Source of the DNA: Hysterium pulicare CBS 123377
Lineage: Eukaryota > Ascomycota > Dothideomycetes > Hysteriales > Hysteriaceae
DNA: 64,000 nt
Assembly (NCBI GenBank): GCA_000467715.1
Contig: AJFK01000324.1
Coordinates: forward strand, 119,972 to 183,971
Direction: 5' to 3'
In this document: piece by piece, positions 30,177 through 63,461 of the stretch
Position numbering within the stretch: the first letter of the stretch is position 1
Layout: each line of letters begins with the position of its first letter
Translations under genes and position numbers: made by a program
Notes under the pieces: model-generated
Seen by the model: only the letters and a program-made list of their open reading frames with translations
What the model was told of the DNA's origin: nothing
The model's database searches: none

Positions 30177-31061
30177 ATGGCGGACAAGGTACCAGCGGCC
30201 TCCTTTTTAGGAATCCCACGAGAATTGCGCGACAACATCTACTCGTATGCCAAACAAGACCGACCACACTTTCGACCTCCACGTACTTTATGGTTTCTGC
30301 AGGCACTGAACATACACTTCGAAGACGCGCCCATCAGTGCAATCTACCTCTTGAATCACCAAATACACCAGGAGTACCACGGGATTGCACTCAAGTGCTT
30401 GAGAGCAGTCATCGGCTTCTTCGGGCTTCCATCATTATTTGTCTTCCATGGCCCATGGCACTTATCCAACCAAAGTAATGTCTTCCGCCGTCTTCTGTCG
30501 CAGACTAAATATCTCGAAATTGTCATCAACCTGGGGCCTTTACCCGGAACTCTTATGACAGTAACACTCTCTACTCCACTCCTCAACCAGTTTTGTCCCA
30601 TGATGCCGGAGTTACAATGCATAAGGATCGCCATGGGAGTTCCAGCTGGTACTGTTGAAGAAAACATACTTTACCTACCACCTGGCAAGCCCTTCCCTAA
30701 CAATTTTCCCGCTATGCTACCGAGCAGCTTCTGCGGTTTTCCAATTCAGCAGATGCAGCAGAGCTTAAGGGCACACCGAAAGGAAATGGATCCAGAATTC
30801 CCCCCGAAGCATATGCTATTCGTGACGACAGTGTACCTGTATGCGCGCAATGATGTGAGAGGGCTGGCGTCACTAAAATGGAGTCGGCAGGAGGCAGAGG
30901 AGAAAATACCATGGAGGGGTTCGGTTGCAGGGCGTCTCTGGAATGGAGAGTATGATGACGAGGTCTTGCGGCCTTTGGTGGCTCTGAATAGAAGTAGTTA
31001 CGTGGGAAGCTTAATGAATCCCTCGTGGACTGGGGTGGCTTCTTTGACTTCTTTTCTGTGA
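30177..31061 (+). CDS. 2EXR-family protein
   Basis: Intronless, 294 residues. The hallmark SFLGIPRELRDNIYSYAKQD starts at about residue 9, so the N-terminal tail is short. The second block is AIYLLNHQIHQEYHGIALKC, the middle block LLSQTKYLEIVINLGPLPG, then FCGFPIQQMQQSLRAHRKEM and a final strand FVTTVYLYARNDVRGLASLKW. These match block by block the protein at 34878-35759 (LTNRQLNVEYSES, LIGFPVKQKQRCLR, VTVVVMYASNEVGGLRNLVW), so the two are clear paralogues. The conserved final strand and Trp suggest a complete protein. Function unknown. Confidence 0.8.
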   Translation: MADKVPAASFLGIPRELRDNIYSYAKQDRPHFRPPRTLWFLQALNIHFEDAPISAIYLLNHQIHQEYHGIALKCLRAVIGFFGLPSLFVFHGPWHLSNQSNVFRRLLSQTKYLEIVINLGPLPGTLMTVTLSTPLLNQFCPMMPELQCIRIAMGVPAGTVEENILYLPPGKPFPNNFPAMLPSSFCGFPIQQMQQSLRAHRKEMDPEFPPKHMLFVTTVYLYARNDVRGLASLKWSRQEAEEKIPWRGSVAGRLWNGEYDDEVLRPLVALNRSSYVGSLMNPSWTGVASLTSFL

Positions 31062-32754
31062 ATTCGCGAGATGGCATAAGCATATATATACTTATATGAT
31101 AGCCCTCAGGGTAACGAACTGGATTTTTGCCTGTTCCCAGAGCCTAATCGCTTCGTGCACTTGGCAGTCAGCTTAGTTGGGGGCATAAGCAATAACTCGG
31201 TGTAAACAAGCTTGCAGGATCGCCGCTTGGGTTGTTCAGCCGCCCTGAGTTGATCAGCTAGTTTTGGGGACCCCCGTGCGGCTTTGGTCACCCCCGGGGC
31301 AGCTTTGAGCTTCACAAACAGCCCCACTGACTCTTTGAGGCCATTCACATTCCTACATCAACAACATTGTGAACCAACGTAAGCAACATACAAATTGGGG
31401 TACTACTTACCAACAAGCTTTTCAGTAGGTTAAGAATCGCGTAGCATTTCGCACACCCACCGCCTCCCTATCTCATGAAGGACCCACTAGAGCAGTCGTT
31501 TTAACTTGCTCGGAACTCCATTCTGCACCAAGCCAGCTCTTTAATTCTGAATCCGAAGCATACTGCAATACTCGTGGCAGTGTACGCAGACGTTGTACAC
31601 CTATCGCGAGCGAATGTAAGTCCTGCCAGCCAGTCCATTGTGATCGAGCCACCCCCTACCGGCAACAATAGAACGTTTGGCAAAGCTACCGTTCCTTACA
31701 ATCCGTCTCCGGGCACACAACTTGACCATTCGTTCGCGTCCTTTCAAAAGGGGCTTGGCTACAAGAGCTATACGCATCGCAACCCAGCGTTTCAGATGGC
31801 GTTAGAGAAGAATACAAGGAACTATGCGATCAGACAACAACCCCTTGCTCTCCTCTGCATCTTTAGGAGATGGCGAGTATGCGACCTACGCGCGACGGCG
31901 ACCTACTTGCGACAGCGACCAGAATATTCAGATTGCATGGGCAGAAACTAGTTGCAAGCCCTTGGAGGAACGTGGAGTCCCCTAGTTGATTGGCTCCGCT
32001 GCATGAACATCGAGTTACTGTATACGTACTCCTCAATTGGCTCGCAAAGCCGGAAGCTTCATACAGCTAGCACTCGGTCGTGGAAAAGATTGACTATTGT
32101 TAATGCTTCCGTAGCCTCCTGTGGTAACATGTTTTGAGCTGAAAGTTGCAAAGAAATGGCTTTTCACCCATAGCTGATACGGTTTTAGTGTTTCCAGACC
32201 ATCTTCAAGTCCATTATGGACCGTTACTCAAGATCGCCATGTCTCTCGATCTCCGCATACGATACCAATAATTCGGATTCTCAAGGATATTTGACCAGTT
32301 TTCCAAAAGCGCGTTCCGAGATTTCGTGATAATTAGAGCATGCACGATGCATATTTGAGGCTGGAATTCGGTGTCCCCAGGACTGCTATGATCTGGATTG
32401 TTACTCGACTGACATTCAAAAGCGGATGGCGCAGATACGGCGTATACAAGAACATTAAGACAGTTCGGCCTCGGAGTGTTGAGCCCTATCATCATTCGAC
32501 TGGGAACAAAAACTGAGATTCAATCGAAAGGGAAATAATGAAGATGATGGACACGGCGCAACAAGCAACAAGGTTACACATAAGCCATAGGAGACCGAGC
32601 ACCAGCTGAAGACCAACAACTGGCCTGCTTGAAGGTAAGACACATAAAGGAAATTCAGTTGTCGCATTCCGCATGGATCCAAATGGGAGTTGATCGAAGA
32701 GGGAAGATGAAGGAATGACCAAAAGAAAGCCGCATGAGAATCAAAGAAATATCG
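31062..32754. other. intergenic region, no supported gene
   Basis: Open segments occur at 31106-31348 (minus, Lys/Arg-rich) and 31574-31951 (plus, 125 codons) but lack ATG context, splice partners or family resemblance. A pair of minus-strand frames at 32214-32722 is hydrophobic in part (GLCVTLLLVAPCPSSSLFPF) and likewise unassigned. Confidence 0.35.
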
Positions 32755-32990
32755 ATCGTTACATCATGCAATGAACTCAACCGTCAACGAGTGCTTGAAT
32801 TATGATCATAGCGTTTACGCGTGGCCGAGCTTCACCAAACTCTTCTTTAAGACGACGAATATTGGGCATACTTGAAGGCAATAGACAAGAAATGGGAAAA
32901 ATGGTGTCATATTCCGCATAATGAGGCTTTGTAGAAAGCTTCAATGCGGTGCCGACAGTAATAACGGAAGAAACGACGAAGATTGAACTT
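32755..32990 (-). pseudogene. relic of a 2EXR gene 3' end
   Basis: Read on the minus strand this contains MPN, ATTCG and then AAGAAGAGTTTGGTGAAGCT followed by CACGCGTAA, matching the end of the pseudogene at 36091 (MPNLSTIRLG, KKSLIELNHA, stop). Similarity continues beyond the stop to TGATGTAACG. Upstream of this the frame is lost. It is a short, decayed copy of the same locus. Confidence 0.6.
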
Positions 32991-34877
32991 TGGTACGCAT
33001 CTGACTGAATGAAGAGAACTATCCTGACAATATCTTTCTGCTGCAGCCATCAGACAAGAAATACTATGGCATGCCAATGATTACTCAAATTTCAGTCGTT
33101 TGATACTTCTCTTTAAGGATGGATGATAAGATTTTACAGGCATATACGGCAGTGGTTCCACCAAAGCATGTTGCCAAAGGCCCAGTCTATATTTCTTGAC
33201 GCTCTGCAAAGGCTCTTTACTCTTGGGGGCAACAATCACGATGCCACCTGAGAAACCTCGAAGTATAGCCTAGAAGGCGCATGGTAAGATCTACCAGCCT
33301 CCTTTTCTAAGATTACTAACAAACATCCTTGTGTAGGTCGGAGAGCTAAGCAAGTCGTCATTGTTATAGAGTAGCCCGCTTACACATGGGCAGTCAGGAT
33401 TTCGAACGTGTGGATTTGACCGTGGATCCTTCAGCGTCAATCTAAAATTCTTCCTGCCTGAACCAATAGTCGAAGGAGCCTCAAGTCGTTGGTGAATCCA
33501 AGTCCAGGTATCTCCTCAGAGGCCCGTCGCTCTTGTACTGCTCCTAGTTGAGCAGTCTCAAATCCCGCGCACGAAACTGAGATCCTCTTAGGACGCACGA
33601 CAAGTACCGCCGCGGTTTTATGTGACGGCCGTGCTTCCTGTGCGTAGCTTCAAGGCTTATCATGGAGTGGTGACCTTCTGCGTCTCTTCCATCCTCGCGT
33701 TGGGCTGTCGTTCGAATAGAGTTCGCCGTGGCTGCTGCTTTGGGAGTGCAAGGGCCCCTGTTAGCGTTGAGTCAGCAGCAACGTCGGCTGTAGTGACAGT
33801 ACGTACGCACAGGTAGCGACGACGTGCATCTACAAATGTCCAAGCACGTCGAGCACCGAGAACTGCGTTCCGGCTGAGAGGCATCTGGTGGCGTTCATGA
33901 CGAGGGAGAACGTTTTTTTGGGTGTGTGCACAAGCCACAGACTACAGGCGGAGGCGGAGCTGGCTTGGTCACTTTGTCTGTGCTGCAGAGCGACACACCC
34001 ACAAGCTACCACACTGCAGTCGCATGCGGCCTTGCTATCTTGCTGACGCGGTCGAAAAGCCACTTGAGGGTCGGAAGTAGCGTTGGTCTTATCCACATGC
34101 AGAGAAAAACAGTCGTATGCACCCACAAGCAGAGGTAGCATAGCGCGTGCAGTGTGAGACAGTCTGGCATGACATGGGGAGGAAACATAATCAGGCCGGG
34201 GATGCTGGAGGAGGAGAACCGCTTTCGATTAGCAAACGGTGCTGTTGATCATCCTGCAAGCCTTCACAGTTTGTATTCTATATGTAGTGTAGCAAACTTT
34301 CGTATAGAAAAGATAATAGAAGTGTCTGTAGCTCTCTTAGCACCAATAGCTGCCTCTGCTTGACGCCTTTTCCATGTTTCTCCTAGTCTGCGCTCAGCAC
34401 GCACCACCGAAACTCTAATAGCTGCAATCTATATAACTCTCGCATTACGAATATACGTAGCAAAACATGTACCGCGAAGTATCGGAAAGGAAGTCTAAAA
34501 ATTTGTTCCCTCATTACAGCCCTAAGGTATGACTCTCTATTTGCTGAGCTCACCACATGTACCCAACACACGTTACATTCGCAAGAAACTAGTATGTTCA
34601 ACTTCGATTTCGGCTGTAGCTGCGGGACATCGAACCTCCCTCTCATTATGGTTTACAACAATAAAATGCATCAATGCCGCCCAAATCAAATGATCATTCT
34701 GTTATCTCAAGCCAATTATCATTCGTATATACTCTTAAACCGACTCCCAACGAGCAACCTTCACGTGCAATTTGCTCTTTGTTTCATACATACATCTCCT
34801 TTGTTGTTTTCTATCTTTCTACTCAAGCATATCGCCGAAGCAAAGCATGCCCTATTCCTACTCCTGCCGTGTACTGT
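32991..34877. other. gene-poor region
   Basis: No gene supported. At 33600-34190 base composition shifts to higher GC than its surroundings and CACCCACAAGC occurs twice (about 33998 and 34113), which could mark old mobile-element DNA; no terminal repeats or transposase motifs were seen. Confidence 0.35.
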
Positions 34878-35759
34878 CTACAGCAGCGAAACCCAAACAT
34901 CTAAACTCTTCATTTTCTCTTCCCCATCATCCACCTCTCCACGATTCTTAATAACGCACTTCGGCTTGACCTCGATAGTACTCTCTGCCTCCTCCTTTGT
35001 CCACACCAAGTTCCTCAAACCTCCCACCTCATTACTCGCATACATGACAACCACGGTAACATGTGTCATATGTATAAAGCTCCACCCACCCTCGTCCAGT
35101 TCCTCATAGTGTAGTAACCGGGGTCGTAAACACCTCTGTTTTTGCTTAACCGGAAACCCAATCAAGATATCTGGTATCTTATCCAAAACTTTTTGTTGCA
35201 AGTGGCTGAAAGGGTCTTCCCAACGAAGAAGACGTCCCAGAGTACAATAATCCAGACCGAGAGAGAGACGGAGAGAGCGGAGAGAAGGGGTTCGTGGAGC
35301 TAATGTACGGTTCATCAGAAAGTCAATATCATATAGAAGCTCGACAATCCACCAGAGATCACCATCGGTGATGATATCGAGGGTCACGATTTGAGAGAGC
35401 AAAGAGGGCACCACATCGCCTGGATAACCCAACCTTGGAACCCTTTCAAGATCGAATGTACAAGAGAGCTTCGGGTCCTCGAATCGGATCGTCGCTTTGA
35501 AGTTTCGGGAGATACTCTCGGAGTATTCGACGTTCAGTTGTCGATTTGTGAGGAAAACGCTCGGGAACGGAGATTCAGGGAAGGTAACTGTTACGACTTT
35601 TACACATATACATTCCTCGTTCAGATCTCGTTGGTACTCTACTTCGTGGTGGACATAACTGTAGATTTGATCGCGGAGTTCGCGAGGGAGGCCGAGGAGT
35701 AGATTGAAAGGCGCAAGGGTGGGTTTGGACGTGCTTAATGCCATGCTGCTCGTTGTCAT
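34878..35759 (-). CDS. 2EXR-family protein
   Basis: Intronless, 293 residues from ATG 35759. Hallmark LLLGLPRELRDQIYSYVHHE at about residues 20-39. Then FLTNRQLNVEYSESISRNFK, SLLSQIVTLDIITDGD, ILIGFPVKQKQRCLRPR and VTVVVMYASNEVGGLRNLVW. The block order and spacing match the paralogue at 30177-31061 closely. The C-terminus is short and acidic (NRGEVDDGEEKMKS). The 35760-36090 region contains two copies of GTCAACGGTGAC, a possible regulatory repeat upstream of this gene. Function unknown. Confidence 0.8.
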   Translation of the reverse strand: MTTSSMALSTSKPTLAPFNLLLGLPRELRDQIYSYVHHEVEYQRDLNEECICVKVVTVTFPESPFPSVFLTNRQLNVEYSESISRNFKATIRFEDPKLSCTFDLERVPRLGYPGDVVPSLLSQIVTLDIITDGDLWWIVELLYDIDFLMNRTLAPRTPSLRSLRLSLGLDYCTLGRLLRWEDPFSHLQQKVLDKIPDILIGFPVKQKQRCLRPRLLHYEELDEGGWSFIHMTHVTVVVMYASNEVGGLRNLVWTKEEAESTIEVKPKCVIKNRGEVDDGEEKMKSLDVWVSLL

Positions 35760-36090
35760 GGTAGCTTGGTTTGGTTGTTATAGTGTGGCCGCCTCTGGAT
35801 GTGGTGTTTTGTGTTTTGTGTTTTGTTTCTCTTGGGTGCTGGTTTCTTCCCAAGTCCACGAAGCAGCGAACAGCGCCTTTTAACTTCCACCCGGTGCGTA
35901 CTTAGTCAACGGTGACTCAAAGACCTAGATATCACGTTCAACCATTGACTCTTTTTGTCGTCAACGGTGACGACAGCGTACCAGAACCAAAGAAACCACC
36001 CCAACGAGAACTCAACGCAAAATCAAAGCAACACCGTTACATCATTCAGTGAAATCAACCAGGAACGAGAGCTTTAAATATAATCACCGC
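35760..36090. promoter_or_regulatory. upstream region with repeated GTCAACGGTGAC
   Basis: GTCAACGGTGAC occurs twice, about 53 bp apart (about 35907 and 35960), within the promoter of the 2EXR gene at 34878-35759. A third, related GTTGAC core occurs nearby. It could be a factor-binding site; this is inference. The right part is the 3' flank of the 36091 pseudogene. Confidence 0.35.
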
Positions 36091-36609
36091 TTACGCGTGG
36101 TTGAGCTCAATCAAACTCTTCTTCGATCCGAGGCGAATAGTGCTAAGATTCGGCATGACGGGAAGTGCGCCATCAAGGAGAAAATAGTTGACGTTCTCAA
36201 CATATCGCTCCATCCGGTTACATTCCCTGGAGATAATAGTGAGGTACTGAATTTTAGCTAAGAGAGATGGTATGGGGATGCCGTCTTCGGCGGTCGACCT
36301 GCGCATGAGCACTTCTCGTGGCTCTCGGGTATTAAACCTCACGGTCTTCGTCGCGATGACACATCTGAAGTTCTTGTAGGCTCTTGACCGGTACTCTGAA
36401 TGGATTTGATGGCTCAAGGGAAGAACAGCCTGGATCGGAGCCTCCGGAAAGTGGAACGAGAAGACTTGTATCCGGCCCACGTTACATTCGTGAATCTGGC
36501 TTAAAAGGAGGTCTCAATGCAAGTAGTTGTAGATCTCATCGCGAAGCTCATGCGGGATGCTAAGAAGGTGCGCGGTGGGTTTGATCAGGGCTATGGCTGA
36601 GGAGTCGGC
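36091..36609 (-). pseudogene. 2EXR-family pseudogene, stop codon inside the hallmark domain
   Basis: The exon begins after a perfect acceptor (CTAACGCTGTAG) at 36609 and reads AHLLSIPHELRDEIYNYLH, then TGA (36516-36514), then continues in the same frame (DLLLSQIHECNVGRIQVFSF, LPLSHQIHSEYRSRAYKNFR, ALPVMPNLSTIRLG) to TAA at 36091. An intron (36610..36681, GTAAGT donor) and a short coding-like upstream exon remain recognisable. Apart from the one stop the frame is intact for 173 codons. It is also shorter than intact members (about 290 residues), lacking the last two family blocks; the same truncated end occurs in the 32.8-kb relic. Confidence 0.75.
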
Positions 36610-36918
36610 CTACAGCGTTAGTTTGAGCTGCGGGACACGGGCGAAGTCCAGTTCGCTGCCTTGCGACTGTTTCAGACTTACTGTAGGAATGGTACTGTGA
36701 TTTGAGGATGTGAAGAAACTGTTCTGGCTTGATTCCTGTGAATCGAGGCAGGATTTTGGTGTTGTGGGCGTCAGTGACGATCTATACGATGTTTTCAAAC
36801 GGCATAGCGCGACTAGCGGTGGAAAATGCACGTGCAACGCTACTTATCAATACGCAACACCGCTGCAAAAGGATTCTTTTACACAACTCCCCTCACAAAT
36901 TCAACGTTCCGCTGCGCC

Positions 36919-37804
36919 ATGTCGTCGACCAGCGCCCGATCTACTACCCCCTTTTTCACTGCCCTCCCCAGGGAGCTACGCGATGAGATCTACAGTAATC
37001 TGGGCGAAACTTGGAGTATCCGCTGTGTCATGATTGATGATGGGTCCCCTACCCGTCTGTCTCGACCCCCTATAAATACTACCCCTCAAACGTTCATCTT
37101 CGAGGAGCCATTTCGAGCCATTCTAGACGTCTGCATCCCACACAATCCAGTAACGGACTTGCTGTTGGTCAACAAACAGATCCGCTCGGAGTATCTTGAC
37201 ACCATTCTGCGCAATCGGAAAGCAGGACGGGCTATTGTTACTATTGGTGCAATACTTCTCGACTTTCCGGAATGGAGACTGCGGGCTGAAGCGAACAAAT
37301 TTGACAGATGGAGCGCTTTCAGCCCGTTGAACATCAATCGCGACATTCAGCTCTACGGTGGATTGAACCTGAGTTTCGACGACGTCTTTCCTTACATCGA
37401 AGCTTGTCGTGGCTTGTCACTTCGTCTGGCTCTGGCGGATGGCGGTATGATGCACACAGGAATCATCAAATATACGGTCAAGAAGATTGTCGGCGAAAGA
37501 GTGTCGGAAGAGGTTTTGGAGACTAAGTTGGTGAAGAAGTGCTACACTGTGACAAAGAAGCTATGGAATGACAAAAATTTGGAGGCTGTGTGTGGTGATG
37601 ATGGGGATCTGATTGTGATGGAGTCTCATACCACTGCTAGTAAGTTCAAGCCCTCTGGATCGAGTACTCAACTATTATAATTGAGAGACTGACATATACC
37701 AACTCTTAGAAGATTGGTTATGGGATCCCGAAGCGGGTCGAGAATGGGAAGCGGAGACACTAGCAATGTATCAGAACTTAGACATGGAAGGTATTCAACC
37801 GTAA
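36919..37804 (+). CDS. 2EXR-family protein
   Basis: Two exons, join(36919..37639,37710..37804), 271 residues; the 70-bp intron has a consensus GTAAGT donor and CTTAG acceptor and the joined frame adds DWLWDPEAGREWEAETLAM to the end. Hallmark PFFTALPRELRDEIYSNLGE at about residues 11-30. Second block LLLVNKQIRSEYLDTILRNR. The ATG at 36919 (MSSTSARS) is preferred over an in-frame upstream start because it puts the hallmark near the N-terminus as in its relatives. The Trp/acidic C-terminal motif is not seen in the other members of the array, so this copy belongs to another branch. Function unknown. Confidence 0.78.
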
Positions 37805-38340
37805 GGGTGAACTACGGGTATCCAAGGTCTACATGCAAAAATTCCACTAAAGCACTGCTACTCAGGACTTGTGCCGATGTTCGAGAGGAAAAAGGAGGAT
37901 GGGCTCATCCTGTACCTACGACGAACACTGAGTTCCTAATTCTCTCATAAGCATGATTTGATTATATCGAGAGCCTAAAATCGAATATTGGGTGATTCTT
38001 AAGATAATTGTGTGTATTTGAAAGAATCAAAAACGGACACTGGGTAAACTTGCACCTCAAAGAGCTGTAGAGTTCTCGTAGGATTAAGGAGTATGCCCAC
38101 CGCCCAGCTTTGGGGGACCCAGCCATTCATAGAAACAACTACTGCCTGACAATGAAATACAACTTATATCATAGGCACTATAACTTTACTATCTCTGAGG
38201 CTACCTTGGGCGGAGGGTTAGCCCTGGGTGGGCTTGGCATCACGTTGCCCTACCCACCACGCGAATCTAGTGTGCACTTTTAACACCTGCGCAGCTAGAC
38301 TTACGACAGGACTAGTCAACACACTTCGATACAATTCGAC
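37805..38340. other. intergenic region
   Basis: A/T-rich flank between two same-strand 2EXR loci. Nothing recognised. Confidence 0.3.
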
Positions 38341-39306
38341 ATGGATGACGGTTCCTCCAACGAAGTGGTAATTCGGGCTAGGATCCCGGAAGGCAATACG
38401 AGCACCCCTTTCCCCAGCGCATCGACTCCCACAGCAAACGCCTTAGACGGTGACGGCGGCATGATGATTGGAGATGTAGGTGTTAAGCCAGAATCAAGAG
38501 CATCCTTTTTCACGACCTTTCCCCGCGAGCTGAGAGATAAGATATACCGCTACATGCTGATCGTTATCTCATTTCAACGAGTTGAACCACTGCTTGGATG
38601 GGAGTCCACCACCGAAATCCGACTCGAAGGCGCTCCAGCAAAATTCTATACTCTGGTCAGTCGCCAATTCAAGCAAGAGTACATGGACGAGCATCGGCGC
38701 AACTTCAAGGCCAAGGTTATACTTTGCGAAAAGGCGGCACAGCATCCCTAGGACCAGCTGCCGATCGGACAATCTCTCAACAGTCACGCTTCGCTACTTG
38801 GTATCCTCAAGGTCTGAACAATTATCGTCGATAATAGAGCCGCCTTCTCGACCAGTATTAATCGGCCAAGTACTCCCGTCTGGTGGGAGTTTCTCCCCGA
38901 TCCGGACAAGCGGCTGCTTTTCGATCGAGCAGCCAACAATATCCTCGACTTAATGCACCAAATCAGCGAGCTTGAGATCATCATCATAGGTGATGCAATG
39001 CGGTCTCTTGGTCTCTCCAACAACTCGGTTGATCCGTACGATTTCGTCGACTTCCACGGGTGGCGGCCTCTGAACTTCGAGTTTGGAAGGGCTAGAACAA
39101 TCAAGACCCTCAAGAAGAAGGCAATCATTGCTGATGTGGCCCTGGAAGGGTTTACAATTCGACTGAGGTTGGTGATGAGAGCTTTGGACATACCGAGAGG
39201 AAGCATCATGTGTATGAAATCAGCGATTTTCGGGCTGAATGTGGTGAGATCTTGGGGAAATGCAGACAAGACCGAGCAGATGAAGAAGGAAGTCAATTAT
39301 GATTAG
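38341..39306 (+). pseudogene. 2EXR-family gene with two in-frame stops
   Basis: From ATG 38341 a single frame runs 322 codons to TAG 39304 but is broken by TAG at 38749 and TGA at 38815. Before the stops: SFFTTFPRELRDKIYRYMLI (hallmark) and YTLVSRQFKQEYMDEHRRNF (second block). After them: RPSTPVWWEFLPDPDKRLLF, DLMHQISELEIIIIGDAMRS and FEFGRARTIKTLKKKA. The frame is preserved throughout, so the damage is two point changes rather than indels. No GT-AG pair removing both stops in phase was found. Either it is a recent pseudogene or an unusual intron is used. Confidence 0.65.
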
Positions 39307-50026: not shown

Positions 50027-50742
50027 AGCGTTTCATGGCATATCTATCAGCACGGAAGGGCAAAGCAGCAAAAGATGCTCCCTTTAAAATAGAATTTGCA
50101 ACTTCGAGTCGCTAGTGAATCGTTGCTTAGATGCAAATAGTGGATGAGCTTATGCTTCTGTCTTCCGCAAACGAACTCGGAGATCTTTGGCATCTCATTA
50201 ACGTTCTATTGAACACCGCGCTGCAATCTGTTGGCTATCTTGCAAAGGACACGCTCTCCTCCTTGGATTTGTGAGCCGTCACTACCTTTAGGGCGTATCC
50301 AGTTCGAGTTGCACATACAGCACTAGGTGAGCTTCTCAAGTGAAACGCATTCCGACTCAGCCAACAGATCTAGTATAGCCTCGCTCTTGACACAATTTCC
50401 GATATTTCGAAGCACATTTGATTTCAATTTATTGCACGTGAAACCCTTACAAGGGAGCACGATGATCAAGTCAGAGAGCAATCACGTGACCTTGATGCTG
50501 AACCAACAGACCGCGGGAACATTTTCTACAATATGTTTCTGAGTATTTGATTCATATTCGGTATCAAAAGCTGCTCCTTTGAACAGATGGCCAAAGATGG
50601 CTGTGCTGCCTGGTGATTAGAATTCTAATTTTAGTGCTCGCCCCCTAACTTTCAATGATAAACCCCACTTGCAAACTTTCTTCTTGAGCCTGAAAGACAA
50701 AGAACCTACAAATGATTTCAGGTTCATGTTCTCGGAGAAGTC
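50027..50742. other. intergenic region
   Basis: 3' flank of the neurochondrin-like gene and the upstream region of the DUF3176 locus. Nothing recognised. Confidence 0.3.
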
Positions 50743-51718
50743 ATGGCTGTTTACCCTCCCGATATGAGAGATTACCTTCTTATCGAGATGAGAACGGGCT
50801 TACGTTATCACGATCATACAAGGCTGAAGACCATCCAGCAGTCAGTCCGGTTTCACCACTATGGTCTGAAGAAGTCATTCGGCACTCATTCGACCAGATC
50901 AAAACAGATAATATTCATCGGAACCTTGGCCCACAGTCGCAAAACATCCGAACGATCCGCCGGAAGCCTCTACCCTCGTCCACTTTCGATGAACGCAATG
51001 GATCGAAAGAGACAGACAGGTTATCTCCACCGCCTAAAGCGATCATTTCGACCATTTCGGCCATTTCGACACTTTTTGACCCGGCTCAATGACTGGTGGT
51101 GGTGGAAACTTGGAAGCGTCGTTCTGAGTATCGCATGTCTCACCGCGATGATGGTCGTACTCAGAAAGCTTCAAGGCAAATCGCTATCATTGTGGCGCTT
51201 CACAATAGACCCAAACACTCTTATTTCAATATTTGCAACAGTTTCCAAAGCAACCCTGATGCTTTTAGTGGCCGCATGCATTAGCCAGCTGAAATGGCTG
51301 TACCTCAAGCATAGCGATCATAGCCTGCATAAACTACAGATATTTGACAGTGCGAGTAGTAGTTCTCTAGGAGCACTAGAACTTATTACGAGCGTCAGAC
51401 CAAATGAGGTATTGTCAGCTCATAGCACTGGTTCAATTCGGGCCATATGGGGGGCAATCTATACTGTTCTCGCTTTGGCTCTAGGCTCCTTTGCTCAACA
51501 GATAGTCTCCTTTCCAACTAGACAGACCACATGTTCTGATGGGAGTAGCTCTGCTTGTTGCCTCCATCACCTTGACCACACATGACCAACCGAATCTTTG
51601 GAAATCGTCTATTCTCGCTTTAGTATTTACATGGCCGCAAGGATGGAGTGAGACGACAGCCCGGGACAGAGCCCGAGTGAGTTATGGGAAATCACAAAGG
51701 GTCTGCGCGGTCGGCTGA
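50743..51718 (+). pseudogene. DUF3176-family membrane protein with internal deletion
   Basis: The frame from ATG 50743 reads to 51585 (280 residues). It contains DUF3176 landmarks: DWWWWKLGSVVLSIACLTAM, WRFTIDPNTLISIFATVSKA (second membrane segment LMLLVAACISQLKWLY), then LQIFDSASSSSLGALELI and ALALGSFAQQIVSFPTRQ. In intact relatives several hundred residues of extracytoplasmic domain follow. Here, only a few codons later, another frame (51539..51718) reads MGVALLVASITLTTH and LWKSSILALVFTWPQGW, the last membrane segment and C-terminal tail of the family. So the middle is missing and the frame is shifted. A 9-bp repeat (CATTTCGGC-like, about 51048-51072) encodes RPFRPFRHF. Nonfunctional by this reading. 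Confidence 0.65.
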
Positions 51719-52220: not shown

Positions 52221-53447
52221 ATGCCCTCCATCCAGTTTGTTGCAGCCCTTCTTGTGGGTCTGTTCTCTATGCCCTCACATGGATGGTTTTCATGTATGAA
52301 CCCCAATAGCTTCCTAGGGCCATGGCCGCAGAACGACGAAAAGATCTCCGTTATCACTTACTGCTACGCCGCTCCAGAGGACTTCGGCAAATTGTCGTTC
52401 GCTCTCTCTGAAGGCTGGCAGATCTGGAAAGACGCTTTCAAGGCTTCAGGTGTAACCCCGCCAGGTGTCGACTTCCAGGAGTACAAGCCTAAGGAGGACG
52501 GAGCGAACAAATACTGCTATAAACTCGCGCCAGGACAAATGAGAGCTACGGCCGACTCTGAGCCGAACCCTGACATCCCCGACGGCACAGTGGTTGTCAC
52601 TTACACCCCAGGCACCATTGTCTCCTCTGTTGGTTGGATTTCCAAGGAGCATGATTCAGATTTTGATCGGCAATACATGCGTCTCGATCCGGCAGGACTT
52701 GATAACCCGAATGATTGGTATGTTTGGGCACATGAAATCGGTAAGTACATTTAGAGGCCCACAACAATTTCGACTAGCGAATGCATTCATGACTCATCAT
52801 TACGCATCTGGCGACTAACAGAGTTCTCAGGACATCTGTTCGGATTCTACCATGAGCATTCACGTCAAGACCGAGATAAACACGTCAAGTTCATGTGTGG
52901 GAATCTTGGAGACTACGACAACGTAAAAGGCCAACTCAGGGATGGCGATACCATGGACAAAGCTTGTACTGACCTTGAGACTGCTCACAAGTATGACTTC
53001 TCGGCTTCCAACTACATCATCATTGAAGCGGCTGGCGAGTGGAGCGAGTCGTACGACCTTGCCTCTATCATGCATTACAAGTCCACGACAAGACCTAACG
53101 GCGATACAAATGACCCCAGGCACGCTGATCTCGCGAAGATTGTCGAGGACAACGGACTCGCGTTCATCGGTGTTAACAGCAAACCTTCTGGACTTGACAT
53201 ATATGGTGTTAGGCATATGTATCCTTCGCCACCCTCTTCAGGAACTGGTCCAGGCAATGGAGTTGGAAATGACACCGTGCCCATCAATTCGACTGCCATC
53301 CCAAGTGGCGCTTCGCCCATCACCATACTGCCGGCTATTTCGGGTCATTCGTCGACCTTATCCACGGTTTACGGCCGTTCGATTTCCTCGGCTGCTGCAT
53401 CCTCTCCGGTCAGCTATGGTCCCAAACCGAGCAAGACGCAGCAGTAA
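52221..53447 (+). CDS. secreted astacin-family (M12A) zinc metalloprotease
   Basis: Two exons, join(52221..52740,52831..53447), 378 residues; the 90-bp intron falls inside the catalytic motif and joins HEIG to HLFGFYHEHSRQDRD. This is the astacin signature HExxHxxGFxHExxRxDRD with all three zinc His. The Met-turn is SIMHYKS, with the Tyr that serves as a further ligand. The signal peptide is MPSIQFVAALLVGLFSMPSHG. The region between is a short propeptide-like and N-terminal catalytic segment (FALSEGWQIWKDAF). The C-terminal 70 residues are Ser/Thr/Pro/Gly-rich, a likely O-glycosylated tail. Astacins are endopeptidases; in fungi they are secreted and the substrates are mostly unknown. No EGF or CUB domain follows. 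Confidence 0.9.
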
Positions 53448-54702
53448 CCCTACTCTGTCACTTTTCCATCTCGGATTCTTTCTCAATCTAGGGGGGCTGG
53501 TGGTAACATTTCATCTTCTGTTGACCAGTGGATGTTCCCTGGCATCTGTTTTTCTACACGGCCATTGTCCGGGAACAAAGTTTTTGTCTGCGATGTACGG
53601 CTATGGATGCATATGGATATGTAAGCTTACCTAGGTAGTCTCATTCAACATATCGTGAATGAAAATCAAGGCTCAGAGTTTTCAACTAATATTACTTGAC
53701 ACGTGTAATACTTATTAACATCTTTGGCGATTAGACCATGCAAATTCTATGAGCAGGGCAGCCCTGCACATAAAGCTAGCCTTCCCTGACAAGTTTCGGG
53801 AGCGGGCCGCGCCGCAGAACCCTGACGCTTCTTAACATCCTGGGTATGATCTCGTGTGTGTAAACGTCTAAGTCAGACGTCATATCGAGTAGCCGATGGG
53901 CCACTCTTTTCCCCTCCTCAAGAGTGGGAGTATTAAGGCCGATAAGAATGCATATAACCGTAACAAGAATCAGTGCTCTGACTGAAGAAGGTGTTCTGCT
54001 AGGTTGGTGCAGTAGCCGAACTGCAAGGACATGAGAAGTGGGGAACCCAGGTGTCGAATGGTGGGGAAGATAAGTTGCGCAGTGCCGATCATTTTACCTG
54101 CACTCCACTATGCTTGATGAACTCCTCATCCTGCCGTGCGCCATGCATGCGGACGGCCGACCCAGCGCTTGAAATCTGCCAATCAGGATGTTCCACTTCT
54201 ACCGTATTCGCTTCCTCCTCAAATGGCTGCTCGTGGACGCCCTGAAGATTAGTGATCAAGTCCCCTGTCGGCTCGAACACCAGTTCTCTGACGCCCGGAA
54301 TATAGATGAAGGATTTACCGCCGTCTACACATCGATGGATCTGTTCAGATGTTCTAGTATAGCCGCCCTGTCCGTACCTTTTCCTACGTCATGTTGACCA
54401 CTTCCCACTTTTGCTCTTTGCCAATAGATCTCTGGTCCCGTCATCCCTTCCTTGAAGAATGCAGGAAAGACTTCACGATGCGTTGTGTCAAAGGATAGTC
54501 GGTGGCTTTAGTGGACTGTATGAAACTAGACTAACATAGAATAGGGATAGCAGTGATACGATGAAAGACGAGCGAGAAGCAGACCAGTATTAGATTCAAT
54601 CGTGGACTTAGCATCGCGGGCTCCCAAGGGGCAGTACTATTGATACGTACTATCGAGCAACGAAACTATCCAAAGAAGCCTCCACTTTGGCACAGCGAGG
54701 GC
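53448..54702. other. gene-poor region
   Basis: No gene supported. Short open frames around 54051-54397 on both strands lack motifs and splice partners. Confidence 0.35.
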
Positions 54703-55225
54703 TCAATCCAGTCTCAATGTATACACCGACCACGGGAAATCCAGATCGAATTGCCACCTCTCCATCGGTAGTTCTCCCCTTCCTCTCCAAATAGTCCGAT
54801 CATACCCAGGTATTTCCCCACTCTTCCGTCTTAGACTTCTCCTCCTCCCACTCTCCCTTCGACCTTCGAATTCTTGTATCTCGGGCGAAATGTTTCTGAG
54901 ACCGTGGCCTTCTTCGGTCCCGCTGCATAGGAGCGGACCCGGTGGAGAATCGACGGCGAGGCTGCTCGAGAACTGTGCGCCAATATCCTTAAGATACCAC
55001 TCTCTTGACGATGGATCTATCCTACGTCTCGGGGTAGGGACAGGATCCCCCTGAGTATTTGTTCGGTGAGGAGAACGCCCGGTTTTAGATGAGCAAGGGC
55101 AACATGCTCGGCAACTGGTTCAATGAAGTTAGCTCTTGTCGGTTGGGAGATGGATGTGAGAAGGCATACGAGGAAGTGGAACTGAAGTCTGATGATGGTA
55201 CGGTTGGATGAAGTGCGCTGGACAT
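54703..55225 (-). CDS. small protein of unrecognised ACCPCS / IGAQF family, copy A
   Basis: Two exons, complement(join(54703..55114,55170..55225)), 155 residues; 55-bp intron with GTATGC donor, GCTAAC branch site and CAG acceptor. Exon 1 encodes a Ser/Pro/Thr-rich start (MSSALHPTVPSSDFSSTSS). Exon 2 opens with CRACCPCSSKTG, then PSSREWYLKDIGAQF, a charged middle (EFEGRRESGRRRSLRR) and ends LPMERWQFDLDFPWSVYTL. Copy B (58291-58773) has the same intron position and phase, ACCPCS right after the acceptor and YLRHIGAQF about 35 residues later, which is strong evidence that both are real genes. I do not recognise the family. The clustered Cys may bind metal or be acylated; inference only. No signal peptide or membrane segment. 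Confidence 0.65.
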
Positions 55226-58200
55226 CCTCGCGCTGGAGGTTGATGATTCCGGGACTCGTCGCGATTGTTTCTGGCGGATATGTGGCAGGCAGAATAGAGG
55301 TGGACAGGTTGAAATGAGTTAAGAAGAAAGCGATACTAGTTGATTGGATTCATTTCCGGAGTATATAAAATGGGAGTTCTTCTGGAAAGGAGGAGAGAAT
55401 ACTTTATACGCATACCTGAAACAAGCCTTACCAAACGAGGCCAACGTCAACGCATCCTTCATCGAGATTAACTCTATTAACTGCAGCTTCCGAAAAGGCA
55501 TAATAATACCCTAAAGCACGCTCTCTACAAGCAATTACAGTTCCAATCGCCCCGCCTTAGTTGACAACTATTCCCGAAGGATCCTGAGGCTGCATTACTA
55601 TGCCTGCAAACGCTTCTTGGCTAGGACCTACACCGTCAGCGCTGCATCTGGCCCCCGAGATACCCGTAATATGTCTATGTGCTTTGGTCTCTTGACGCCG
55701 GCCACCTTCCTCTTTAGCCGCTTGCATATCGCGGACACTGTCTCTTCCTTCAATTCCTTCTATTTCAGTGTTGAAACACACCGCCGTGTTTGTCGTCGTC
55801 GTACGTCGTATGCACGCTCAAGCTTAATCAGGATTCATTCTATGTATCTTCGCAGTCGGAGCTCGAGGGTATGAATGTGGTACGGCAGTGGGTTTAGTAC
55901 GCAGACAGCCAATAGAGTACGGTATAGTACGCCATGTCACGATCTCCTTTGCGGAAGGCTTATTCGCGCGAGCGTTGTCTTGGTCTGCTCTCGCAACTCC
56001 ATCTGAATTCTAAAATAATACGTGTCGAAGTTGTGCTATTTTGCAGTTGCTTAACCACCACATACTGGATGCTAAGCGCTATGGCTTAATAAGTACCTGG
56101 AAATAAGTTAGTAGGCGCTGTAGGGCTACTGACAGACCAGCTACAGGACCGCTAGTGTATAATGGGTGTCTGGCGATAGGTAAGGTAAACTCCGTTTGGT
56201 AAAGGATTCTGCGGCTCTGTCTTCCCGCACATCCACATCCTACCTAGCTGGCCTGAAAGATTTGTATTGGACACCGCCATTCCCCCTGCATCTTCGGGCT
56301 TGCCGTAGTCGGATCTCTCGCATGTAGTCCTATTCTTTGCATGGCCCCAGCCGCTGATAATAATGGCTGAACCAGAAACGTAGTTGCTCTTCACCGGTCA
56401 AGAATGAAACGGGGATGTCAGTGTCTTGATTCTGAAAAGCGGGGTTGCCCAGTGATTGCAGGGTTGGAAGTAGCCTGCAGGAGGCTTACGCAGCTCCACG
56501 ACCATCACGATCTACAGCCATGAATACGGGTCCCCGGAAGTCCAAACCAAACCATGCTAAACAACATATCACGAACATCGCCTCGATATCAAGATCGTTC
56601 CGGCTGCGTTTGATGAGCTCTCTATAGAAGGTCTGTTGCAGCGAGAGAGTCCGATTGACGCGAACAATGTCCAGTTCTCGCTTTCGAGATAAGCATTCGT
56701 CAGGCGATGGCCTCAATAAGCCGATGGCGCCTCGAAAGTTCAGCCGCATACTTCTAGAAGCAATTGTGGCCCTGTAGTTTGCCGCCGTTCTGGTTGCCGA
56801 CTGTTGTCACCATGCCCACCCAGGAGAATTGACCTGTTAACAATAGTCGTAATCTCTAGCACTACATACGTGTTCAATCCGAATGGATATTTGGGGTCAG
56901 GTTGATGGATATGCGCTTACATAGACGGAAACGCGTTGATCTAGCGAAAGAACTAAAAGTAGAGAAAGAAGGATTTGGCGGCTCCATTTAGACAGCCGAG
57001 CCGACGAATGAGGGTATAGTTAGGGGACAGTGGCCAAGCATGCGGTCAGACGGGTCAGCAGGTGGACGGAAGATGCACTCCTCGGACGGGTAAGCCAGAA
57101 GCGTCATGCTGTGTGTTAGAGATCCCGCAGTGTCGATCGCTTTCGTGTCAACGACTCACCAAACCTAGCTCTCTACCTAGGTAAAGTGACATGATGTGCG
57201 ACTAAATGATTGCAACGAAGACGCCATCAGGGCACAGTTTATTGTCGACGGAATGAAGTTGGTCCAATATATTAAGAATGCACGAGCCATTGGAGCGGGC
57301 CGCAGGTCGAACTGAAAAGTCTAATTCTATTGGGTATTGTGTGTACCGGCAGCGTTCGCTTCATTCTCGAATAACAGCTGGCCAACGCCCCAGATGATAT
57401 CAGCCAAGCTATCGTTAGGAACCCCGCAATTGCCTCTCGGACGGTCGCTTGCAAAATCTCTAAATATAAGAGATTTCATAGGAACCGATATTGGCTAAAC
57501 CGATTGGTTTCAAGATCATAACGGATAGTTTTACACTCTACCCAACACCACATCCCTTGACGTGGAAGAAAATGGTTGGACGTCCTTCTATCACTGCATT
57601 CGCTTCGCTCTCGAATGACCGTTCGCGAACGCCCTAGGTATAATTGAGCGGATTTATCGTCGACAGCATTCGGGGGGCCCGATTCATGACTCCTGGATGA
57701 GCCTTAGCTTACACGTAGATTGTGACAGCTGTTGCCGCAAATGCTAAAGATACAATTGCAAGTCAGCCTCCTGTCGTAGATGCGTCTTTGTTTTGTCCAA
57801 TGGATGTCATAAGTTTCCTTAAACCTTCAATGAGAGATCTTTCTGGTTCGATGAACTTTCTCAAGGGCCCAGCCCCCGTTGCAGCGTTGCCTGCGTCTTT
57901 TCTCCCTTTTGACACTGTCAAACATTAAGAAACTCTCCAGATCCTTCACACCAACCATCATAACTGCCCTCTTCGGCTTATGATTTCCCACTAACAACTG
58001 ATGCGTTGACAGGATTTGATCCCACAACTACCCCAGTGTCTTTCTGTAACCAGCCCCGCCGAGCATCAGAGTGGACGCACCCACAGCCACTTTACGCGAT
58101 ATGCGTGCTTTTTCCAGATATCGAGTAAGAAATGCCCTCTGAACCAGCCGAAGGTGCTGATCCCTTTTCGAACGCGGTTAACAAGCATAATCCGCACATC

Positions 58201-58290
58201 CGCCACAACTTCCCACCTTTTGTGCAATACCCATGCACGGCTAGCAGGAGGCGGGATTGGTGAGGTGCAGTAGTGCCTTAGATTATTATA
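55226..58290. other. 3-kb gene-poor region
   Basis: Many short open frames, none with coding composition plus splice signals. No terminal repeats or transposase motifs were found. Two copies of a CATTCGCTTC...TCTCGAA-like segment occur near 57355 and 57597, probably a minor duplication. Confidence 0.35.
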
Positions 58291-58773
58291 CTATTTAGAA
58301 ACATGGGTCGGACCAGTCCTTTTTTCGTACGAAGACCGAGGGCTCTCCAGAACCGTCTTCCCATTCTGCACCGAAAGGTTCCCTTCTTCTTCCGAGAATA
58401 TCTCACGGTCGGGCTTCATTTTTCTAGGGCTTCGAGAGCATTTGCTTTCGTTTCCTTCATTGTTATCCACCTTAATGGGTTCGCTTTCCCCTAAGGTAGT
58501 CGAATGAGGATTTAGTACTTGCGATGGATTCCTGGAGCGCGGGTTGTCCTGGAATTGTGCGCCGATGTGCCGCAAATATAGGCTGATGGGAGTAACATCT
58601 TTCACGCACTTGAGACTTAAGGAAGTGCCGTCGTTTTCTTTGCGGTCATGAGAGTGCTCGGTCTCCAAAGAGCATGGACAGCATGCTTGAGATCTGGTAA
58701 TGTGAGTTCGAAAATCGAAAGTTGGAAAGTCGCAACGAGACTCTTACGAAGATAAGCAAGAAGGCTCAGACAT
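58291..58773 (-). CDS. small protein of unrecognised ACCPCS / IGAQF family, copy B
   Basis: Two exons, complement(join(58291..58693,58748..58773)), 142 residues; 54-bp intron (GTAAGA...TTACCAG) at the same place and phase as in copy A, interrupting a Ser codon. Exon 1 is only 26 bp (MSEPSCLS). Exon 2 begins SQACCPCSLETEHSHD, then PISLYLRHIGAQFQDNP and a hydrophilic tail rich in Ser, Lys and Glu (SKCSRSPRKMKPDREIFSEE). It lacks the LPMERW end of copy A. Outside the two motifs the copies are strongly diverged, so the duplication is old. No domain recognised; probably a disordered cytosolic or nuclear protein. Confidence 0.6.
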
Positions 58774-60497: not shown

Positions 60498-62276
60498 TTA
60501 GGCAATGAAGATAGGCAACCGACTCCCATAATACTTGGACGGAAGCATCGGAATATCATCAACCGGATCATGCGCTCTCATCCAAAGAAAAGCCCGAAAC
60601 ATCATGACAATCCATGCCTCATCTACGAGCGCCTCATCGCTGCAGCCCTTAGATCGCATATAAGCTCGATAGTCCGGCATGTACTTCCAATACCAAACCA
60701 TTGCCTGTCCTCGCCATGGCTGGTCTTCGGGACTCCGATATTGAACATCATTTTTCCTCACGCTTTCGAGCGCATCTGGAAAGGATCGAGGCGCCTCGCG
60801 GAGATGTGCGACGACTAGATCGAAATACTGGAAGCCGCTGGTACTTTGTTCGAGGTCCTGGAAGTACAAGGTTGTCTCTTTATACAGTTGTTCGATGTCG
60901 TTATAGAAATCGAGACGATCTTTATCTGGATCCCTGATACCGTCCCATTCATTTTGCCAAGTATCATGGAGGCGTTGGTATTCATCAGCTATCCTTTGGA
61001 TCATCTTTCTTTGCACTCCTTTTCCTTGCATGTACTTCGATAGCTGACTTTGAAATGCTAGATAGGCCACATGGTACCACGTAAGCCCTTTAGTATTGCC
61101 CAACGGTCGCGGATACCAGTTGATGTCTGTCCCCGATTGTCGAAGCCAGGGTGCAACCAAAGGGATAATGTCGCTGAAGCCGTGGAGGTAATCGCTCTTC
61201 CGTTTTTGTGCTTGTTGGAGACTCTGCGCAGCTTTACCTTCGGGGTCGATTCGCCAGAGAGTATCGAAAATTTCTTTGGTGGTTCCAATCTGGAGGTCTG
61301 GAAGGGATAGGTCAGAGTTCCCCGGTAGAATTCCAAACCAGAACTTATCAGCTGCTGGACTCCAAACAAAGCGGTATTTTGGAGCATCCGAGTTTTCATT
61401 TTTAGGCCCAGGTGAACGTGGTTGTCGGAGTACGGTAGCGGATTCTTCATCGTTGCGAAAATGGCTTGCGGGATCATTTCCTTCCTTATCAGTTCCGTCA
61501 CCAAGCCTTGAACTGCTGACTTTTAGATCATTCTCTTTTTCTGACTCTGTGCTGTAAAACTCCTCTTGAGTGTCATCAACAAGTAATGCGGTATAGCTTA
61601 TTACTGTTCCCAGGCCCCGAACCTTAGTAGCCGAAAAAACGTGTCCGCCACCCTCTCCCTCCATGACACCGTCTGTCGGTCTGAAGTCAGACCATTTAAC
61701 CCCCATGCGAGACGCGAGAATTGCGATAACCGATAATGTTGTCGTCGCGAAAGGTCTGACGACCTCCGGCGGCATCAGATCCCAGGAGCGTTGCTTTAGT
61801 CGAATGCAGGGCCAAGAAGATCTCTGTTTCTGCCATTTAAACCTCCTAAGATGGTCTGTCGTAAATATCTGGGTCGCCATTGGCTCCGCTGTGTTGTGAA
61901 GTGCATGGATAAGTGGAACCCAAGAGACGAGCTCAGTGTCTTGGTCGTCGGCCTTTTCTCCAGTCGCGCCTTCGTCGGAAAAGGTCTTCTTTTTCGATGT
62001 TTCGTCCCCAGTCAAAGGTATTATCGCATCAGAGCTTGATGAAGGGTAACAAGGACCTAAAACAATATCTGGAGTCTTAAATATAGTATCGTATCTGAAT
62101 TGACTCCAACTCCAATCGCGTTTCCGATGCTGCGACCAGCCCCCGATCACGGACTTCTGACAATGCCGATAACCTTCAACGGTTCCAATGACCTGCGCGA
62201 GAAGCTGAAAGACTGCTATCACGAGTGCGACGATAGAGATAACCAATGCGCTGACGGCGGTTGGATCTATCGCCAT
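60498..62276 (-). CDS. modin-like fungal membrane protein
   Basis: Intronless, 592 residues from ATG 62276 (MAIDPTAV); the frame is open further upstream but only with non-ATG codons. The N-terminal membrane segment (SALVISIVALVIAVFQLLAQ) is followed by GYRHCQKSVIGGWSQHRKRD and WSQFRYDTIFKTPDIVLGP, the opening of the fungal modin-like family. Downstream blocks include LVSWVPLIHALH, MPPEVVRPFATTTLSVIAIL, YRFVWSPAADKFWFGILPG and the end WIVMMFRAFLWMRAHD with PSKYYGSRLPIFIA. Modin was described from Podospora as a component linked to incompatibility-type genetics; the biochemical role is unknown. The middle (about residues 250-300) is acidic and variable. The gene looks complete and uses normal codons. 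Confidence 0.7.
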   Translation of the reverse strand: MAIDPTAVSALVISIVALVIAVFQLLAQVIGTVEGYRHCQKSVIGGWSQHRKRDWSWSQFRYDTIFKTPDIVLGPCYPSSSSDAIIPLTGDETSKKKTFSDEGATGEKADDQDTELVSWVPLIHALHNTAEPMATQIFTTDHLRRFKWQKQRSSWPCIRLKQRSWDLMPPEVVRPFATTTLSVIAILASRMGVKWSDFRPTDGVMEGEGGGHVFSATKVRGLGTVISYTALLVDDTQEEFYSTESEKENDLKVSSSRLGDGTDKEGNDPASHFRNDEESATVLRQPRSPGPKNENSDAPKYRFVWSPAADKFWFGILPGNSDLSLPDLQIGTTKEIFDTLWRIDPEGKAAQSLQQAQKRKSDYLHGFSDIIPLVAPWLRQSGTDINWYPRPLGNTKGLTWYHVAYLAFQSQLSKYMQGKGVQRKMIQRIADEYQRLHDTWQNEWDGIRDPDKDRLDFYNDIEQLYKETTLYFQDLEQSTSGFQYFDLVVAHLREAPRSFPDALESVRKNDVQYRSPEDQPWRGQAMVWYWKYMPDYRAYMRSKGCSDEALVDEAWIVMMFRAFLWMRAHDPVDDIPMLPSKYYGSRLPIFIA

Positions 62277-62735: not shown

Positions 62736-63461
62736 CTACGGGACATAAATGTTCCATAGGTAAGCATCATCTTTTTCATCTCTCCACCTCTCCATCGGCA
62801 ACGAGAGTTTCACTTCAGGTTTCTCCTGCATTCCCCCTAAGGATGTATTAGGTCCATCCAGAGCTGACACATTCGCTGGTGTAGAGGCATGTCTTTCATT
62901 TGACTGGATGCAGTGATTGTCATAGGCGCTGCCATTCTCATCAATACCGAAAGTATTTCGAGATAGTGACGATATATCCGTTCCACTTTGACACATCTCG
63001 TTGCTCCCTTCGAAGCCACGTTCTGGAGGTTTAAAGGCAGTCTCCTTGGGTCCGAAACTGTCGTGGATCATGTTCTCCTCCGCCGCTTCGGAGTCGTTCG
63101 GTATGTCCAGAGTATAAGGATAGTAGGGAGATGAGATGTCATCTTTGGAGCCACCATGGTCAAGGACTTGGTGAGTAGGAAGGAACTGAGTCCCAACATG
63201 TTGAAGTTCCCCGACGGAGTCATCGATTTGCGATATTGATCGCATTGAAAAGTCGAGATGTCTATGTTCCTCGAAAGCAAAATCGAAACTCGCTCTTGTA
63301 TAGGAGGTGTCGGACTCATAGGACCTAGCAGCTGAGTAAGCGTATATTACAGTAAGAGAAGCGCAGGTAGGAAGATATAAGGTGTCGGCAGGACCTTACG
63401 GTGGTGTTGTGCATCGACCCGAAGACAAGTCAGATGCCGAAGACATGGTGCTGTTTACCAT
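62736..63461 (-). CDS. hypothetical disordered protein
   Basis: Two exons, complement(join(62736..63324,63400..63461)), 216 residues; 75-bp intron with GTAAGG donor and CTGCTAG acceptor, restoring TTPPSYESDTSYTRAS across the junction. A second ATG (63446, MSSASDLS) is an alternative start. The sequence is acidic, Ser- and Asn-rich and without hydrophobic core, membrane segment or known domain. The C-terminus LPMERWRDEKDDAYLWNIY shares LPMERW and its position with copy A of the ACCPCS family (54703-55225), possibly a distant relation. It lies directly upstream of the modin-like gene on the same strand. Function unknown. Confidence 0.6.

What the first reader, a model, noticed from the sequence alone, without database searches (positions are those of the whole stretch)
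54703..58773. Previously unseen small gene family with ACCPCS and YL..IGAQF motifs
Two loci 3.1 kb apart (54703-55225 and 58291-58773, both minus) have the same two-exon layout, an intron of 54-55 bp in the same phase within a Ser codon, ACCPCS directly after the acceptor and WYLKDIGAQF / LYLRHIGAQF about 30 residues later. The rest is diverged. I do not recognise this family. Conserved intron position plus motif order makes chance unlikely. Conventional open-frame calling misses the first exons.
Basis: partly seen in the sequence, partly recalled or inferred. Interest (0 to 1): 0.7.

Follow-up and report, generated by a model that had tools for sequence, protein, structure and literature searches.

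The report
Small fast-diverging fungal gene trio
Two, probably three, short neighbouring genes in what looks like a fungal genome seem to be old, strongly changed copies of one ancestral gene; this is a fairly ordinary kind of finding, and what the proteins do is unknown.

Summary
Both loci exist at the stated coordinates, with 55- and 54-bp phase-2 introns, ACCPCS two residues after the split codon, and (W/L)YL..IGAQF 29-30 residues later. The spliced proteins align far above shuffles (92 vs 32.7±5.5, 0 of 1000) and are each other's best match in the 37.2-Mb genome. It has LQHVGTQF and a C-terminal LPMERW...W.(V/I)Y that A carries at almost the same distance from its stop. A phase-2 intron with a GTAAGG donor fits C, but its junction is not unique. 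A 592-codon ORF with an N-terminal hydrophobic helix lies between B and C on the same strand. A, B and C match no Pfam family. They are hydrophilic, show no signal-peptide-like segment, and A exon 2 is predicted mostly unstructured. Best reading: a diverging local family of disordered cytoplasmic proteins built from short motifs; the docking mechanism is inference. 'Previously unseen' could not be tested, because no other fungal genomes were on hand. Expression is untested, and codon usage gives no support.

The parts
55170..55225 (-). gene A exon 1 (MSSALHPTVPSSDFSSTS + first 2 nt of a Ser codon)
   Evidence: the only solution under the consensus rule, one of two with GT/AG alone
55115..55169 (-). 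gene A intron, 55 bp, phase 2, GTATGC...CTAAC...CAG
54703..55114 (-). gene A exon 2: CRACCPCS, WYLKDIGAQF, C-terminal LPMERWQFDLDFPWSVYTLRLD
58748..58773 (-). gene B exon 1 (MSEPSCLS + first 2 nt of a Ser codon)
   Evidence: the only solution
58694..58747 (-). gene B intron, 54 bp, phase 2, GTAAGA...CTCAC...CAG
58291..58693 (-). gene B exon 2: SQACCPCS, LYLRHIGAQF; no LPMERW
63400..63446 (-). gene C exon 1, favoured model (MSSASDLSSGRCTTP + first 2 nt of a Pro codon); in-frame alternative start 63461
   Evidence: 13 GT/AG start-and-junction combinations
63325..63399 (-). gene C intron, favoured model, 75 bp, phase 2, GTAAGG...TGCTAG; a phase-1 alternative is 63418-63332 with donor GTCGAT
62736..63324 (-). 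gene C exon 2: GELQHVGTQF, C-terminal LPMERWRDEKDDAYLWNIYVP; probable third member
60498..62276 (-). 592-codon ORF between B and C on the same strand, N-terminal hydrophobic helix, only itself found in the genome; a type I recall being annotated 'modin' in fungi (recalled, from no call). It is listed because of adjacency only

Best explanation
A, B and probably C are diverged paralogues of one small fungal gene, duplicated locally (all minus strand, within 8.7 kb) and evolving fast while keeping a short 5' exon, a phase-2 intron, a Ser-rich N-terminus, a central L-x-x-(I/V)-G-(A/T)-Q-F element and, in A and C, a C-terminal LPMERW...W-x-(V/I)-Y tail. Shown: open frames, motif order, A-B homology, intron phase of A and B, no hydrophobic stretch that could be a signal peptide, low-confidence, mostly coil prediction for A exon 2. 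Inferred: the products are cytoplasmic, disordered proteins that work by presenting short linear motifs. The central element would fold on binding into a short helix, the C-terminal tail would be a second docking site, and in A and B the CCPC cluster would be S-acylated to hold the protein at a membrane, plausibly near the membrane-helix protein encoded between B and C. I put about 0.85 on A and B being one real coding family, 0.70 on C belonging (lowered from 0.75 after one search showed that C's intron is not unique), and about 0.25 on the docking mechanism; the number below is for the whole statement.
For: A-B score 92 vs 32.7±5.5, 0 of 1000 shuffles; B-C 62, 2 of 1000; A-C 51, 7 of 1000. 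Whole-genome reciprocity of A and B. LPMERW pattern: 3 places in 37.2 Mb: A, C and one FPMERW in a 37-codon frame. L..(I/V)G(A/T)QF pattern: 9 places, 3 of them A, B, C. LPMERW is followed by 16 and 15 residues in A and C, and the QF motif starts at residue 63, 52 and 59. Phase-2 5' introns: A, B and C are 3 of the 4 such ORFs among 90 tested. Of 44 identical residues in the A-B alignment 30 use different codons, and third positions are least alike (0.49/0.53/0.37). All three plot on the disordered side of the charge-hydropathy line, with no 19-residue stretch above 0.65 Kyte-Doolittle. AlphaFold2 on A exon 2 with B and C aligned: mean pLDDT 50.5, no residue at 70 or more; its only helix longer than 4 residues is 34-45 (PSSREWYLKDIG), over the first part of the central element.
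Against: Codon usage does not support coding: all-codon scores for A (-0.198), B (-0.125) and C (-0.016) all lie below the nine training genes (0.020 to 0.162, scored without leaving them out), and A and B lie below the mean of 8 shadow ORFs (-0.084); the synonymous-only score separates hardly anything. C is the weakest member: with GT/AG alone it has 13 start-and-junction combinations, in phases 0, 1 and 2; its sense-frame score with A (51) is below one antisense frame pair (59), its sense score with B without splicing (38) ranks fourth, and C is not among B's six best of 601 window ORFs. The central element is not amphipathic in A (1805 of 2000 shuffles reach its moment), and not clearly so in B (198 of 2000) or C (55 of 2000). 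B lacks LPMERW; C lacks CCPC. The model confidence is too low to rely on. Nothing links the proteins to the 592-codon ORF except position.
Confidence: 0.4

Rival explanations
1. Only A and B are a pair of duplicates; C is an unrelated small gene that shares short motifs by chance.
For: A-C and B-C pairwise scores are modest (7 and 2 of 1000 shuffles reach them); an antisense frame pair outscores A-C; C lacks CCPC, is longer (211 aa), and its intron is not unique.
Against: Order and spacing of the N-terminal Ser-rich exon, QF motif and C-terminal tail agree in C; A, B and C are three of nine genome places with the QF pattern, and A and C are two of three places with the LPMERW-type pattern, the third reading FPMERW.
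Confidence: 0.25
2. The frames are not genes: chance open frames or remnants, with A-B similarity left from an old duplication of non-coding DNA.
For: Codon usage gives no support; no transcript evidence; 249 bp of the stretch between A and B has an 85%-identical copy on another contig.
Against: Similarity is in the spliced protein frame, while the A-B gene DNA alignment scores only 29 (no shuffles run for that number) and the 400-bp upstream regions are hardly more alike than shuffles (21 vs 18.7±2.1, 51 of 300 reach it); 30 of 44 identical residues use different codons; the intron junctions of A and B are all but forced by the frames.
Confidence: 0.1
3. A real, fast-evolving orphan family whose role is recognition or stress signalling (for example self/non-self discrimination) rather than generic docking.
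For: Local duplication, strong divergence with a few fixed motifs, next to a membrane-helix ORF.
Against: In the 16 neighbouring ORFs given to Pfam, of the 112 frames of 100 aa or more listed, no domain that I recall from fungal incompatibility (such as HET or NACHT) was reported; no population data.
Confidence: 0.15
4. Small secreted cysteine-containing effector-like proteins.
For: Small size and a cysteine cluster in A and B.
Against: No hydrophobic N-terminal segment in any of the three (a hydropathy scan, not a signal-peptide predictor); the cysteines are bunched in CCPC and absent there from C.
Confidence: 0.05

Closest known systems
Lineage-restricted (orphan) small-gene families of ascomycete fungi (recalled kind)
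   Same: Short, predicted disordered, locally duplicated, strongly diverged, no Pfam family found
   Different: Keeps a constant layout of short 5' exon, intron and short motifs; whether it is truly lineage-restricted was not testable
Cysteine-cluster S-acylated membrane-tethered proteins (recalled comparison)
   Same: CCPC-type cluster near the N-terminus of A and B without a signal-peptide-like segment
   Different: Cluster lost in C; no acylation evidence; no Pfam match such as PLAC8
Fungal proteins annotated 'modin' (recalled; two searches listed no paper about such a protein)
   Same: The neighbour ORF 60498-62276 has the short N-terminal membrane helix followed by a Trp-rich stretch that I recall for such proteins
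   Different: No Pfam model above its cut-off and no credible PDB sequence; any link to A, B and C is by position only

Membership tests
One common A/B/C family | short 5' exon joined by a phase-2 intron before the Ser-rich/CCPC segment | tested here: inconclusive
   Met in A and B. In C a consensus phase-2 junction exists, but 13 GT/AG combinations in phases 0, 1 and 2 are possible
One common A/B/C family | central L..(I/V)G(A/T)QF within residues 49-67 | tested here: met
   present in A, B, C; the 6 other genome places were read by eye and look unrelated
One common A/B/C family | C-terminal LPMERW...W.(V/I)Y | tested here: inconclusive
   met in A and C, not in B
One common A/B/C family | CCPC cluster after the intron | tested here: inconclusive
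   met in A and B, absent in C
Small secreted effector-type proteins | N-terminal signal peptide | tested here: not met
   hydropathy only: highest 19-residue means 0.56, 0.64, 0.09 in A, B, C, starting at residues 63, 31, 52
PLAC8 or other known Cys-cluster domain | Pfam profile match | tested here: not met
   0 families for A, B (E up to 10) and C (E up to 1)
Zinc-binding CxxCCPC domain | cysteine ligands conserved across members | tested here: not met
   B has QACCPC, C has RCTTPPS in the favoured model
Previously described fungal family | homologues in other fungal genomes | not testable with these tools
   no other eukaryote genomes held; one IMG/VR scan with A exon 2 and one GTDB prokaryote scan with the exon-2 alignment gave no relative

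The most novel reading that the evidence does not exclude
A three-paralogue set of disordered motif proteins encoded around one membrane-anchored partner gene forms an undescribed fungal signalling or recognition module, in which the paralogues present the same docking elements with different, fast-evolving surroundings.
Probability: 0.1. Interest if true: 0.55.

Novelty: new member of a known kind. Interest (0 to 1): 0.27.

Why it matters
It shows that an intron junction plus very short motifs can reveal a gene family that ORF calling misses and that plain sequence similarity barely links. If relatives and expression are found, it would give a handle on how small disordered fungal proteins keep function while most of their sequence changes. 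As it stands it is one more uncharacterised small fungal family.

Tried and rejected
Pfam for A and B, C and 16 neighbouring ORFs: nothing for A, B, C. PDB sequences: A no hit, profile of A, B, C one non-significant row (E 1.6), the 592-codon ORF one at E 0.17; none used. IMG/VR scans with the 592-codon ORF and with A exon 2 and one GTDB scan with the A/B/C exon-2 alignment: stretches matched the peptide patterns (1, 22 and 32), none was confirmed as a relative. Further members in the own genome: the patterns for LPMERW, PMERW and the QF motif and the protein searches showed none; these searches score only the best candidates. PMERW had 9 places; 7 lie outside the cluster, 6 read and the seventh, all in frames of 37-89 codons without the tail. 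Shared promoter: upstream 400 bp of the three pairs not clearly alike. Codon-usage test: no support. Amphipathic central helix: not upheld in A. AlphaFold2 of the 592-codon ORF alone: mean pLDDT 36.7, only about the first 30 residues credible, so no fold search was run. The bacterial promoter scan does not apply to a fungus and was not used. The contig ends at the window's right edge, so nothing could be read beyond it. Literature, all seen as search listings, no paper opened: 'modin' with 'fungi' 98 papers, 20 listed, none with a title or abstract start about such a protein; 'modin' with 'hypothetical protein' and 'fungal' 0 papers; 'CCPC motif' 0 papers; orphan-gene terms 23 papers, 8 listed, not used.

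Full report
Setting. The window is the right end of a 183,971-base contig of a 37.2-Mb, 596-contig genome. The genome tool holds no relatives of it, so homologues in other fungi could not be looked for.

Observation. Both gene models are exact. A: 55225-55170 + 55114-54703 (-), 155 aa. B: 58773-58748 + 58693-58291 (-), 142 aa. Introns of 55 and 54 bp, GT...AG, phase 2 within a Ser codon. The local alignment of the spliced proteins scores 92 against 32.7±5.5 for shuffles, 0 of 1000. In the whole genome A finds itself and B (E 0.01); B finds itself, A (E 0.0115) and a row with a stop inside (E 0.94); B's first 62 residues find A at E 0.0022. That the best match lies about 3 kb away on the same strand makes chance less likely than the E-value alone.

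Coding evidence. Similarity lies in the protein frame: of 44 identical residues in the A-B alignment 30 use different codons, and identity by codon position is 0.49/0.53/0.37 over 131 aligned codons; this leans towards positions 1 and 2 because the alignment was made in protein space. The sense frame pair ranks first of 36 for A-B (97; next 67). The 400-bp upstream regions are not clearly alike (21 vs 18.7±2.1, 51 of 300 shuffles reach it). Against: a codon-usage score trained on nine neighbouring ORFs (3,799 codons) puts A, B and C below all nine training genes, and A and B below the mean of 8 shadow ORFs; the synonymous-only score hardly separates any set. So codon usage gives no support; an unusual amino-acid make-up (Ser, Arg, Cys, disordered) may explain the low all-codon values.

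A third member. 62736-63395 (-) is a long frame with LQHVGTQF that ends in LPMERWRDEKDDAYLWNIYVP, against LPMERWQFDLDFPWSVYTLRLD in A. A phase-2 intron, 63399-63325, joins it to an exon beginning MSSASDLSS, giving C, 211 aa. LPMERW is followed by 16 and 15 residues in A and C. A degenerate DNA pattern for it has three places in the genome: A, C and an FPMERW in a 37-codon frame. The QF pattern has nine places: A, B, C and six that look unrelated by eye. Pairwise scores with C are modest: A-C 51 (7 of 1000 shuffles reach it), B-C 62 (2 of 1000). Without splicing, one antisense frame pair outscores A-C and B-C is unremarkable, and C is not among B's best six of 601 ORFs.

The intron as evidence. 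Of 90 stop-to-stop ORFs of 100-230 aa, 7 can take a short 5' exon across a consensus intron, 4 in phase 2, and 3 of the 4 are A, B and C; with a looser donor rule 12 qualify and 8 have a phase-2 option. The rule was set after seeing A and B. With GT and AG alone, B has one solution, A two, and C 13 start-and-junction combinations in phases 0, 1 and 2, among them a phase-1 intron 63418-63332 that keeps the MSSASDLSS start. So the intron evidence is strong for A and B and only supportive for C. C's membership rests on the QF motif, the C-terminal tail, their order and spacing, the MSS...SS start and the place.

Neighbour. Between B and C on the same strand is a 592-codon ORF (62276-60498) with a hydrophobic N-terminal segment (19-residue mean 2.78). 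A single-sequence model is credible only for about the first 30 residues, in a helix. Only the ORF itself was found in the genome, and it has no Pfam match above cut-off and no credible PDB relative. I recall such proteins being annotated 'modin' in fungi; no call confirms it.

What the proteins look like. All three are hydrophilic, 26-30% Ser/Thr/Pro, on the disordered side of the charge-hydropathy boundary, without a hydrophobic N-terminus. AlphaFold2 for A exon 2 with B and C aligned gives mean pLDDT 50.5 and one helix longer than four residues, PSSREWYLKDIG, over the first part of the central element; no residue reaches 70. The element is not amphipathic in A and only weakly so in B and C.

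How it may work. The reading I hold most likely is a set of disordered motif proteins: a central element that may fold on binding, a C-terminal docking tail in A and C, and in A and B a CCPC cluster that could be S-acylated. The cysteines are not kept in C, so a metal-binding domain as the common core is not supported. Binding partner, location and process are inference; the membrane-helix neighbour is the obvious but unproven candidate.

Verdict. 'Previously unseen' is untested. From general knowledge, small, diverged, uncharacterised gene families are common in fungal genomes, so the interest is modest; the shared intron of A and B and the likely third gene make it a clean, checkable case.

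Noticed in passing
window 52221-53447 (+): Two-exon astacin-like metalloprotease (HEIGHLFGFYHEHSR across the junction); Pfam Astacin E 1.8e-11 on the second exon's frame and 1.1e-14 on a joined reading.
   Followed up: partly
window 57471-57719: 249 bp of the stretch between A and B is 85% identical to one place on another contig (C67:11072-11320), so possibly an old repeat.
   Followed up: no
window 28905-38751: Five ORFs with a PRELRDxIY-type motif near the start (28905, 30174, 34878, 36817, 38299) look like a local expansion of one family (2EXR-like, name recalled); none reached Pfam at E 0.001.
   Followed up: partly
window 50716-51585 (+): ORF with Pfam DUF3176 (E 1.2e-27).
   Followed up: no
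window 54089-54507 (-): Two overlapping-region frames just downstream of A (54089-54388 and 54325-54507) read like parts of another multi-exon gene.
   Followed up: no
window 56486-56806 (-): 106-codon frame between A and B that reads like a protein fragment; no relatives sought separately.
   Followed up: no
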